Positions 4,425-16,962 of a stretch of DNA of 64,000 nt are shown here, piece by piece. Source of the DNA: Arenibacter sp. P308M17 (lineage in GTDB: Bacteria > Bacteroidota > Bacteroidia > Flavobacteriales > Flavobacteriaceae). Every line of letters starts with the position of its first letter. The stretch's first letter is position 1. The translations under genes and the position numbers were made by a program. The notes under the pieces are model-generated. The model searched no databases. It was not told where the DNA came from and saw only the letters and a list, made by a program, of their open reading frames with translations. The stretch covers positions 558,001 to 622,000 of the forward strand of contig NZ_QVON01000002.1 of the NCBI RefSeq assembly GCF_003426735.1. Reading direction: 5' to 3'.

Positions 4425-4874
4425 CTAAACTTCCTGAAGCTGTTTTTTGGATTGCCTATAGGTGTATTTGGGATAGATCATGCGCTTCGCAAAACGGTTT
4501 ACCGTATTGGAATTGACCATCTTTATATACACTTGCTTGGTAACGCCAAAATACTCATAGGTAGATCCGTCCATAAAGGTTATTTCCAAAAGCAGGCCTT
4601 TATGATGGTAGTCGGCTATTCCGGAATTGGTAATGGTTTCCGTATAGGCCTCCAAGTTTGCCGCTATGGTTTCAGGGGCAATGCTCACCAAAAAATGATA
4701 GCCGTCAATAATCCTTCTGCTGTTTACCTCGGCCTCTTCCCGCTTACTATCGCCTTCCTGAAATTTATCGGGGTGCCATTCCTTTACCAAATCGCGGTAA
4801 CTTTTCTTAAGTACCTTTAGATCTATTTCCCTTTCAATCCCAAATAATTTCCTGTATTCGTTTATGCGCTTCAT
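4425..4874 (-). CDS. J-domain and KTSC-domain protein
   Basis: The N-terminal half has a DnaJ-like segment: YRKLFGIEREIDLKVLKKSY, then KEWHPDKF with the HPD tripeptide that stimulates Hsp70. The C-terminal half matches a KTSC domain (GLLLEITFMDGSTYEYFGV, VNRFAKRMIYPKYTY), a short fold found in phage and bacterial proteins and often linked to nucleic-acid partners. The function of the fusion is unknown. The longest frame begins at 4922, but ATG 4874 starts the J domain cleanly and has a -7-like box TAGTTTCG at 4902-4895 about 20 bases upstream, so 4874 is used. It precedes no operon partner. Confidence 0.75.
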   Translation of the reverse strand: MKRINEYRKLFGIEREIDLKVLKKSYRDLVKEWHPDKFQEGDSKREEAEVNSRRIIDGYHFLVSIAPETIAANLEAYTETITNSGIADYHHKGLLLEITFMDGSTYEYFGVTKQVYIKMVNSNTVNRFAKRMIYPKYTYRQSKKQLQEV

Positions 4875-15990: not shown

Positions 15991-16120
15991 TAAACCTGCC
16001 TGCCGCAGGCAGGTGCTCCGACGCTTGCCTGCCCGTTCCGTTCAGGCGGGCGTCAAAATCAAACTTGAATTTCCTTTCAATGCCTCGTGGGCCTGCCTTT
16101 GTCGGCAGACAGGCTTGCCC
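15991..16120. repeat. GC-rich CCTGCC/GGCAGG palindromic repeats
   Basis: CCTGCCTGCCGCAGGCAGG, then GCCTGCC...GGCGGGC, then GCCTGCCTTTGTCGGCAG, in otherwise AT-rich DNA. Related fragments occur at 20529-20550, 36030-36110, 42045-42075, 58498-58515 and 63155-63181, so this is a dispersed family. The remainder of 16121-16354 holds nothing recognisable. Confidence 0.75.
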
Positions 16121-16354
16121 CGAGGTAGTTTACTTATTTAAATCAATTCTGCCCATCCTTGACCCATAAAGCTCCATCTTGTTGGGGTATTTGGAAAGCC
16201 TGTTTGCCATGTATGTTGGGGAATTAAGTACCCCCGACCCCTAAGATATTAAATAGGCTATAATAATCCATAATAATTCGCACAATTCCTTCAACACTAC
16301 TGACACTGTACCCTATCTGAATTTTTATTTTTAGGGGCAAGAATAATTATATGT

Positions 16355-16385
16355 ATATAAATAATTGATAATCAATTATTTATAT
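16355..16385. promoter_or_regulatory. perfect 31-base AT palindrome
   Basis: 15-base arms ATATAAATAATTGAT and ATCAATTATTTATAT around a single central A. It contains AAATAATTG-n5-CAATTATTT (16359-16381), matching the site at 39462-39484 near the sigma-54 promoter in arms and spacing. It lies about 140 bases before the first micro-ORF. Candidate regulator-binding site. Confidence 0.6.
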
Positions 16386-16436
16386 TTTATTCTATTATTT
16401 TCATAAACGTACTAATGTTAAATATTGCTTAAAACG

Positions 16437-16457
16437 GTACTATTTTATACATAGTAC
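16437..16457. promoter_or_regulatory. inverted repeat before micro-ORFs
   Basis: GTACTAT-n7-ATAGTAC, 66 bases upstream of the first micro-ORF. No TAnnTTTG box is visible nearby, so it may be an operator or an RNA hairpin. Confidence 0.4.
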
Positions 16458-16522
16458 TGTAACAATAATGAACATCTGTCGTCTTTTAGTAGTAAATCAA
16501 TTAATCATAATAAAAAAATATC

Positions 16523-16609
16523 ATGGAAACACTCAACAAACATCTGGTAAAACAAACATTGGAATCTTCAAAAAGTAGAATTTGGAACAGTAAAAGGAGA
16601 TACAGTTAA
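16523..16609 (+). CDS. micro-ORF 1, 28-residue basic peptide (tandem paralogue)
   Basis: ATG to TAA, 28 codons. The peptide begins METLNKHLVKQTLESSKS and ends IWNSKRRYS. It is followed 53 bases later by a paralogue with the same length and pattern (NKH.VKQT.E.SKS.IWN.KRR), and the sequence before both ATGs is alike (AATTAA...ATCATGGAA). Substitutions between the copies are mostly conservative (L/V, L/F, L/I, S/T, Y/F) and many codons differ at third positions, which favours real coding. The predicted product is basic, with one Trp and a C-terminal KRR. Function unknown: a signalling or regulatory peptide, a RiPP-like precursor, or a leader peptide are possible. No maturase is adjacent. Confidence 0.6.
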   Translation: METLNKHLVKQTLESSKSRIWNSKRRYS

Positions 16610-16662
16610 CAACACCCCATCAATCCAAAAAACAGTTTATTCATCAATTAAAAATCAACATC

Positions 16663-16749
16663 ATGGAATCAGTCAACAAACATTTCGTAAAGCAAACCAT
16701 TGAAAACTCCAAAAGTAACATTTGGAACACCAAGAGGCGTTTCAGGTAA
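16663..16749 (+). CDS. micro-ORF 2, 28-residue basic peptide (tandem paralogue)
   Basis: ATG to TAA, 28 codons, product beginning MESVNKHFVKQTIENSKS and ending IWNTKRRFR. Seventeen or more of 28 positions match micro-ORF 1, and the length is identical. A-rich sequence (CAATTAAAAATCAACATC) precedes the ATG, as expected for translation in this phylum. It is followed 15 bases later by a third small ORF and then a terminator, so the three appear to form one short transcript. Function unknown. Confidence 0.6.
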   Translation: MESVNKHFVKQTIENSKSNIWNTKRRFR

Positions 16750-16764
16750 TTAAAAACAGTTGTC

Positions 16765-16896
16765 ATGAAATCATTCATTCATAAATCCCAGTCAGAGTCA
16801 ACCAATTTTCAGTTGACCGGGGAAAGTATTTTCCTTGTAAATTTTAAAAATATCAAGAAAAACCGTTGGGCGGAGCGCAGAATCTTTTTAAATTGA
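16765..16896 (+). CDS. micro-ORF 3, 43-residue basic peptide
   Basis: ATG to TGA, 43 codons, beginning MKSFIHKSQSESTNFQ and ending with KKNRWAERRIFLN. It is not a close paralogue of the two 28-residue peptides but shares the basic tail pattern Trp-x-x-(K/R)-R followed by an aromatic or aliphatic residue. It begins 15 bases after the stop of micro-ORF 2, and a clean terminator follows 33 bases after its own stop, so it is the last gene of the unit. Unknown function. Confidence 0.5.
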   Translation: MKSFIHKSQSESTNFQLTGESIFLVNFKNIKKNRWAERRIFLN

Positions 16897-16929
16897 TTTA
16901 ACTTAAGCGAACAAGGTGCTATATGTAAA

Positions 16930-16962
16930 AGCAGTTGATGTGGTAGTCACCTGCTTTTTTTT
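16930..16962 (+). terminator. terminator of micro-ORF unit
   Basis: AGCAGtTGA / TCAcCTGCT stem (one mismatch) with an 8-base loop followed by eight T on the plus strand. It shows that this stretch is transcribed rightward. Confidence 0.85.

What the first reader, a model, noticed from the sequence alone, without database searches (positions are those of the whole stretch)
16523..16896. Tandem paralogous 28-codon micro-ORFs plus a third small ORF in one transcript
Two consecutive ORFs of exactly 28 codons share NKH.VKQT.E.SKS.IWN.KRR, with conservative substitutions and third-position codon changes, and similar leaders before each ATG. A 43-codon ORF with a W..RR tail follows, then a hairpin-T8 terminator. 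Duplication with selection-like substitutions argues these are real basic peptides rather than noise. No known family comes to mind. Candidate roles: secreted or regulatory peptides, RNA- or membrane-binding microproteins, or peptide precursors (the Trp-Asn-x-Lys core recalls cyclophane-type substrates, but no maturase is near). This is my leading candidate for something undescribed.
Basis: partly seen in the sequence, partly recalled or inferred. Interest (0 to 1): 0.75.

Follow-up and report, generated by a model that had tools for sequence, protein, structure and literature searches.

The report
Tandem microproteins under a stress-type promoter
A marine bacterium carries a short run of tiny, positively charged proteins that belong to no catalogued family; many relatives carry similar runs behind one shared DNA switch, parts of which also sit in front of two stress-type control genes, so this is probably an overlooked output of a stress response.

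Summary
In detail: two 28-aa ORFs and one 43-aa ORF form one transcript-like unit. They are real genes: dN/dS is 0.05, 0.05 and 0.09 over 11-12 distinct sequences of the genus. The 28-aa family occurs in 149 of 349 sampled genomes of the taxonomic family at E<=0.1, often in tandem. ORF3 belongs to a second family. Searched alone, it led to such micro-ORFs at 69 of 71 testable loci. Its -35/-10 (GTAAC-N16-CGTC) also precedes a PG0214/GFO_1088-type ECF sigma gene in 29 of 29 orthologues. Its operator-like block also precedes a padR gene, which in this genome lies in a DUF4870-PadR-PspC/toastrack-DUF2807 operon; 29 of 30 genomes show <=2 mismatches to the dyad. Best reading: cationic cytoplasmic microproteins co-controlled by an ECF sigma factor and the regulator of a PadR/PSP-type envelope-stress operon. 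Regulation is inferred from shared sites, not measured. Molecular action is unproven; binding RNA/ribosomes or a regulatory protein is my guess.

The parts
16416..16434 (+). upstream repeat element (TGTTAA ... TGCTTAA), first half of the shared regulatory block
   Evidence: near-invariant in the genus; counterpart of the TGTTAA repeats upstream of padR
16437..16457 (.). operator-like dyad GTACTAT-N7-ATAGTAC
   Evidence: one other place in the genome at <=1 mismatch, upstream of the DUF4870-PadR-PspC genes
16459..16463 (+). -35 element GTAAC of an ECF-type promoter
16480..16483 (+). -10 element CGTC of an ECF-type promoter, 16 nt after the -35
16523..16609 (+). ORF1, 28-aa type A microprotein METLNKHLVKQTLESSKSRIWNSKRRYS
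16663..16749 (+). ORF2, 28-aa type A microprotein MESVNKHFVKQTIENSKSNIWNTKRRFR
16765..16896 (+). ORF3, 43-aa microprotein, relative of the 37-aa type C family
16927..16962 (+). terminator-like hairpin AAAAGCAG/CTGCTTTT with T8, stem kept in the genus

Best explanation
The locus is one transcription unit making three small cationic cytoplasmic proteins (two type A, one type C). Transcription starts from an ECF-sigma promoter (GTAAC-N16-CGTC), most simply recognised by the PG0214/GFO_1088-type ECF factor. An abutting operator-like block is shared with a padR-PspC/toastrack operon, most simply a site of that PadR regulator. When envelope stress frees the ECF factor and changes PadR binding, a short mRNA with A-rich start sites gives many copies of the peptides. 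They then act through the C-terminal motif (S/T)-K-x3-W-x3-R-x-(Y/F) on an anionic or regulatory partner, most likely RNA or the ribosome, otherwise a regulatory protein. Shown by sequence: genes, selection, families, shared sites. Inferred: sigma and PadR binding, stress induction, molecular target.
For: Coding and selection. Start sites: A at -3 in 93% and at -12 in 93% of 175 leaders (a few are internal ATGs) against about 32% at background ATGs; these positions promote initiation in F. johnsoniae (PMC6847099, abstract and passages). Promoter-first test: 69 of 71 loci with micro-ORFs, 55 of 71 with two or more, against 369 and 17 of 8349 control windows. Reverse test: of 40 protein-found loci, 38 gave ORFs by my filter and 37 of these 38 have GTAAC-N16-CGTC within 420 nt upstream. 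ECF link: 29 of 29 orthologues, dinucleotide shuffles 1 of 2900, farther-upstream sequence 0 of 29; family NF058625. PadR link: best dyad mismatches 0, 1, 2, 4 in 7, 6, 16, 1 of 30, against 2, 3, 4, 5 in 4, 38, 163, 95 of 300 shuffles; upstream of the ECF gene only 1 of 29 reaches 2. A TAnnTTTG box follows that dyad in 30 of 30 padR loci and 0 of 79 cassettes. PadR-HAAS-PspC-toastrack systems are proposed envelope-stress modules (PMC11237479, passages). Charge +4.6 for each ORF.
Against: No expression, binding or phenotype data. A shared site does not prove that PadR binds it; in the own genome the padR-side dyad also lies about 65 nt upstream of a divergent 154-aa gene, and the gene order of the operon was checked only there. 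GTAAC-N16-CGTC is not enriched in the own genome (8 sites against 36 for the reversed pattern), so regulon size is unknown. The ECF gene and padR block also occur in genomes where no cassette was found (for example G167, G408, G424). Types A and C resemble each other only weakly (hhalign probability 21%; ORF1 and ORF2 score at shuffle level against type C). One type A gene (L112) lacks the promoter. Two promoter loci drive a longer protein instead (L169, L212). Four same-genus genomes show no such promoter at <=2 mismatches. A review's passages name other P. gingivalis ECF mutants, not PG0214, as peroxide-sensitive (PMC9862357). The structure model is poor (pLDDT 63.5).
Confidence: 0.6

Rival explanations
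1. Same regulation, other target: the peptides are feedback regulators that bind a sensor kinase, anti-sigma factor or the PspC complex, as small DUF1127 proteins bind PhoR. (Differs from the best reading only in the target, so the odds overlap.)
For: Control sites shared with two regulatory operons. DUF1127 small Arg-rich proteins bind PhoR (PMC12501420, abstract and one section).
Against: No partner known; no Pfam hit; genomes such as G167, G408 and G424 have both regulators and no cassette was found in them.
Confidence: 0.3
2. A regulatory RNA with incidental or dual-function ORFs, tandem like the four homologous small RNAs downstream of ccaF1.
For: Tandem units, conserved terminator stem, short transcript.
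Against: 0 of 53 predicted pairs has a compensatory change in 11 sequences; inter-ORF sequence varies while codons are constrained; no Rfam hit at E<=1.
Confidence: 0.08
3. Toxin of a type I toxin-antitoxin locus.
For: Tiny ORFs in multi-copy arrays.
Against: Hydrophilic, not membrane-spanning; promoter-like sites on both strands near the shuffled number; conserved ECF-type promoter; no PADLOC hit at E<=1.
Confidence: 0.05
4. Precursor of a modified secreted peptide (cyclophane-type RiPP).
For: W-N-x-K core and tandem copies.
Against: Window neighbours are OsmC, CSD and EamA genes; neighbour sets differ between clades and no maturase was noticed, though not every neighbour was annotated.
Confidence: 0.03
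5. The dyad is bound by another regulator common to both loci, with ECF control unchanged. (Differs from the best reading only in the name of the regulator.)
For: Only position links the site to PadR; the TGTTAA repeats suggest a second protein; a divergent gene also flanks the site in the own genome.
Against: It is the only other match in the own genome at <=1 mismatch and lies upstream of genes that include a PadR regulator; the sigma-A-type box after it points towards padR in 30 of 30.
Confidence: 0.3

Closest known systems
Small DUF1127 proteins (CcaF1, YjiS)
   Same: Short, Arg-rich, several copies per genome in some species; CcaF1 sits in an operon with four homologous small RNAs (PMC12501420, one section)
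   Different: No Pfam hit; shorter; here the ORFs themselves are tandem; other phylum
HAAS-PadR / PspC / toastrack (PSP-type) envelope-stress operons
   Same: Shares an operator-like block with the padR locus
   Different: The cassette encodes none of these domains; the words microprotein, small protein and short ORF do not occur in PMC11237479
PG0214/GFO_1088-type ECF sigma operon (NF058625, NF058626, DUF4252)
   Same: Same -35/-10 and spacing
   Different: Not adjacent to the cassette in the own genome (contigs C2 and C12), and without the operator block: dyad best mismatch 2 in 1 of 29, 3-5 in the rest
SM6 ECF promoters of F. psychrophilum (PMC9723704)
   Same: CGT -10 box; includes an ECF/anti-sigma pair
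   Different: Whether the ECF is the same was not tested; the 11 promoters in the main-text selection name no such cassette, though one drives an unexplained RNA, Rfp11

Membership tests
DUF1127 small proteins | match to the Pfam domain | tested here: not met
   no Pfam family at E<=1 for ORF1-3
DUF1127 small proteins | RNA or sensor-kinase binding | not testable with these tools
   needs biochemistry
PG0214-type ECF regulon | promoter with the sigma gene's own -35/-10 and spacing | tested here: met
   29 of 29 sigma genes and the cassette share GTAAC-N16-CGTC
PG0214-type ECF regulon | transcription depends on that sigma factor | not testable with these tools
   no expression data
PadR/PSP-type regulon | shared operator-like block | tested here: met
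   30 padR loci, 29 with <=2 mismatches to the dyad; consensus comparison
PadR/PSP-type regulon | PadR binds the block | not testable with these tools
   inferred from autoregulation, a habit of PadR regulators (recalled)
Type I toxin-antitoxin | hydrophobic membrane peptide | tested here: not met
   GRAVY -1.26, -1.31, -0.62
Type I toxin-antitoxin | antisense RNA | tested here: inconclusive
   6 promoter-like sites on both strands, shuffles mean 4.2, sd 2.4
Cyclophane RiPP precursor | adjacent maturase | tested here: inconclusive
   none among the three window neighbours annotated; elsewhere neighbours were clustered, not all annotated
Structured regulatory RNA | covarying pairs or Rfam match | tested here: not met

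The most novel reading that the evidence does not exclude
An undescribed effector arm of the Flavobacteriaceae envelope-stress response: several interchangeable families of tandem cationic microproteins, converging on one C-terminal motif (S/T)K-x3-W-x3-R-x-(Y/F), placed behind a promoter that joins the operator of a PadR-PspC/toastrack operon to a PG0214-type ECF promoter, so that both pathways must agree before the peptides are made in bulk.
Probability: 0.4. Interest if true: 0.85.

Novelty: new variant of a known kind. Interest (0 to 1): 0.72.

Why it matters
Nearly half of the sampled Flavobacteriaceae genomes (163 of 349, my hand count at E<=1e-3 for type A or C, taking the two samples of 349 to be the same) carry micro-ORFs that no family library consulted here knows. 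The conserved promoter gives a direct handle: it suggests the sigma factor, a regulator and a condition, links two circuits, and lets such genes be annotated by pattern. It makes the question of what 28-residue proteins can do in a stressed cell testable.

Tried and rejected
RiPP, toxin and structured-RNA readings (see rivals). The perfect palindrome at 16355-16385 is not kept as such in the genus, so it is not used as the operator. Pattern GTAAC-N17-CGTCT had the wrong spacer and was repeated with N16. Viral contigs: promoter pattern, 0 hits. Plasmids (type A only) and phages (type C only): no match at E<=1. PDB sequences with the type C profile: four chance-level matches, E>=0.68. One structure model, too poor for a fold search. 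Random 1500-nt windows of L090-L129 reach <=2 dyad mismatches in 21 of 200, but these loci contain the cassettes themselves, so this control is not clean. Papers: three peptide fragments and one promoter string in 0 papers; a combined-term search 0; GFO_1088 0; listings only, where I saw nothing on this family. Only open-licence papers are held, so absence in print is not established.

Full report
What is there. The window holds two 28-aa ORFs and one 43-aa ORF on the + strand at 16523-16609, 16663-16749 and 16765-16896. ORF1 and ORF2 are paralogues (68% identity) in a 103-nt repeat of 75% identity that includes the leader. A hairpin with T8 follows at 16927-16962. The flanking genes are OsmC and cold-shock-domain genes on one side and an EamA transporter on the other, all on the minus strand. 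The genus is most likely Arenibacter: a promoter hit in A. hampyeongensis lies on a contig of the same length, 560,846, as the contig of the same-genus genome G005.

They are genes. In 60 relatives the 28-aa query hits 20 genomes at E<=1, including 11 of 17 same-genus genomes; ORF3 hits the same 11 strongly. dN/dS is 0.05 (11 distinct sequences), 0.05 (12) and 0.09 (11), with most differences at third positions. One ORF3 (L005) was left out because its third residue escaped my filter. A 13-row profile finds the 28-aa family in 149 of 349 genomes of the taxonomic family at E<=0.1, in 112 of 237 genera; at E<=1e-3 I count 117 by hand. Some rows of the profile come from genomes in that sample. 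Copies are often tandem: at the promoter loci the median ATG-to-ATG distance is 145 nt over 102 pairs, a few of which are internal ATGs.

More than one family. In other genera the 28-aa type A (MRTLNxNQ...WNxKRRYR) is often followed by a 43-44-aa type B, typically ending WKGTKRYAH. Other loci carry a 37-aa type C (TES...SKRVQWAxYRN), a 33-aa type D or a 38-42-aa type E. ORF3 of the window is a type C relative: score 23.0, reached by 0 of 2000 shuffles of itself (alignment). Type C occurs in 52 of 349 genomes at E<=1e-3. A or C together: 163 of 349 by hand count. Types A, B and C align weakly over the tail with W on W and R on R; against the type C profile ORF1, ORF2 and a type B protein score no better than many of their shuffles (379, 106 and 715 of 2000), and one other type A protein better than all but 13. 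Common ancestry of all types is therefore not shown. Two same-genus genomes without a type A hit (G004, G011) have the same promoter followed by type E and C ORFs: the contents vary under a constant promoter.

The promoter. A block of about 50 bp upstream of ORF1 is nearly invariant in the genus while its surroundings vary, and recurs in distant genera. Nine loci had under 500 nt downstream and were dropped; of the remaining 71, 69 have at least one micro-ORF with the W-x(2-4)-[RK] tail and 55 have two or more, against 369 and 17 of 8349 random windows. The two misses, L169 and L212, encode a longer protein with an N-terminal hydrophobic stretch and repeats. Conversely, of 40 loci fetched by protein search 38 gave ORFs by my filter, and 37 of these 38 have GTAAC-N16-CGTC within 420 nt upstream, 34 the extended form. 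At up to two mismatches the pattern has 16 places in 12 of 296 genomes of the order; all 12 lie in the window's family, 0 in the 246 genomes of other families. At 13 of the 16 places micro-ORFs of this kind follow; the other three (G536, G607) look like chance. No viral contig has the exact pattern.

The sigma factor. In the own genome GTAAC-N16-CGTC occurs 8 times, fewer than its reversed control (36), so the motif alone is not enriched. One site precedes an ECF sigma gene of NCBIfam NF058625, sigma_PG0214/GFO_1088, followed by a 140-aa protein without a family match, in the place of an anti-sigma factor, and two DUF4252 proteins. Searching 30 genomes found this sigma gene in 29, and all 29 carry GTAAC-N16-CGTC within 260 nt upstream; shuffles 1 of 2900, farther-upstream sequence 0 of 29. 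ECF factors commonly transcribe their own gene (general knowledge), so this factor is the best candidate for the cassette. In P. gingivalis PG_0214 to PG_0218 were 5- to 11-fold up under peroxide, and 2.4- to 3.0-fold without it, in strain FLL361, which I take to be the PG_0686 mutant (PMC10101095, passages). Against an oxidative role, a review's passage names PG0985, PG1660 and PG1827 mutants as peroxide-sensitive, not PG0214 (PMC9862357).

The operator block. The dyad GTACTAT-N7-ATAGTAC (<=1 mismatch) has two places in the own genome: the cassette, and a site with similar TGTTAA repeats 170-190 nt upstream of genes for DUF4870, PadR, PspC/LiaF-TM/toastrack (with a weak HAAS match) and DUF2807. 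That site also lies about 65 nt upstream of a divergent 154-aa gene. The padR gene was found in 30 of 30 genomes searched; the best dyad upstream (580-1310 nt from padR) has 0, 1, 2 or 4 mismatches in 7, 6, 16 and 1 of them, while 4 of 300 shuffles reach 2 and none fewer. I did not annotate the intervening genes in the other genomes. Consensus there: TGTTAAatTTaTGTTAAtTTtTAGTACTaTG-N5-CAtAgTAC, followed in 30 of 30 by a TAnnTTTG box, the sigma-A -7 consensus of PMC9723704, which 0 of 79 cassettes have. Upstream of the ECF gene the dyad is not found (2 mismatches in 1 of 29, 3-5 in the rest). So the cassette looks like the padR block joined to an ECF promoter. PadR-HAAS-PspC-toastrack systems were proposed as envelope-stress modules from comparative genomics (PMC11237479, passages). 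Three of the 30 genomes belong to group g147, probably Flavobacterium (my guess), which gave only the chance-like promoter hits, so the block may be older at padR than at the cassette (inference).

Neighbours. In the type A loci a divergent 224-aa protein without a Pfam match lies within three genes in 32 of 38, and an ExbD gene in 22 of 38; this looks like an ancestral site of one clade. Over the 80 promoter loci plus the window, with two genes taken on each side, the largest neighbour cluster has 19 members, so the cassette stands in many places. A functional tie to ExbD is not excluded.

Translation. Of 175 micro-ORF leaders 93% have A at -3 and 87-93% at -11 to -13, background about a third, in line with the positions reported to favour initiation in F. 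johnsoniae (-3, -12, -13; PMC6847099, abstract and passages). This supports translation but is not proof.

How it may act. The proteins are hydrophilic and charged +4.6 each at pH 7; by eye there is no signal or membrane segment. A model of ORF3 gives one helix, 19-42, at low confidence. I commit to binding of an anionic partner, RNA or ribosome, through the conserved tail (about 0.4 of the probability), then a protein regulator (about 0.3). Nothing here tests it directly.

What it is not. 0 of 53 consensus pairs show a compensatory change in 11 sequences and Rfam gives nothing at E<=1. No phage, plasmid or viral-contig match in the searches made. No match for ORF1-3 in Pfam, NCBIfam, PHROGs or PADLOC at E<=1; representatives of other types gave none in Pfam and NCBIfam and one chance-level PHROGs hit at E 0.33 for type B.

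Known or new. No paper held carries the peptide or promoter strings tried. The F. psychrophilum transcription map describes ECF-type SM6 promoters with a CGT box, including an ECF/anti-sigma pair and an ABC ATPase (PMC9723704, abstract, passages and part of one section); whether that ECF is the same was not tested. The nearest functional parallel is the DUF1127 group (PMC12501420, abstract and one section), without homology. I file it as a new variant of a known kind: stress-regulon small basic proteins.

Noticed in passing
window 16355-16385: Perfect 15-bp palindrome ATATAAATAATTGAT/ATCAATTATTTATAT; in the genus only a core like TGATWATCA is partly kept, possibly another regulator site.
   Followed up: partly
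window 16013-16141 and L323 about 4670-4817: Intergenic sequence whose translations are nearly alike (KLEFPFNASWACLCRQTGLPRGSLL), likely a dispersed repeat in this genome.
   Followed up: no
L169 and L212: The cassette-type promoter drives a protein of roughly 150-180 aa with an N-terminal hydrophobic stretch and internal repeats instead of micro-ORFs.
   Followed up: no
L112 6030-6116, minus strand: A type A micro-ORF without the promoter, squeezed between two larger genes in the same direction.
   Followed up: partly
L013: Same-genus locus where no type A ORF1 is found (an unrelated-looking 41-aa ORF lies there) and the promoter has two mismatches.
   Followed up: partly
L140: Another GTAAC-N16-CGTC site upstream of what looks like an ABC-transporter ATPase; the F. 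psychrophilum SM6 list also has one.
   Followed up: no
L095 and L099: Type A copies followed within about 50 nt by a 113-aa protein with a signal-like N-terminus.
   Followed up: no
L103, L104, L117, L119, L092: A small heat-shock (Hsp20-like, by eye) gene cluster member lies next to the cassette in these five of 38 loci.
   Followed up: no
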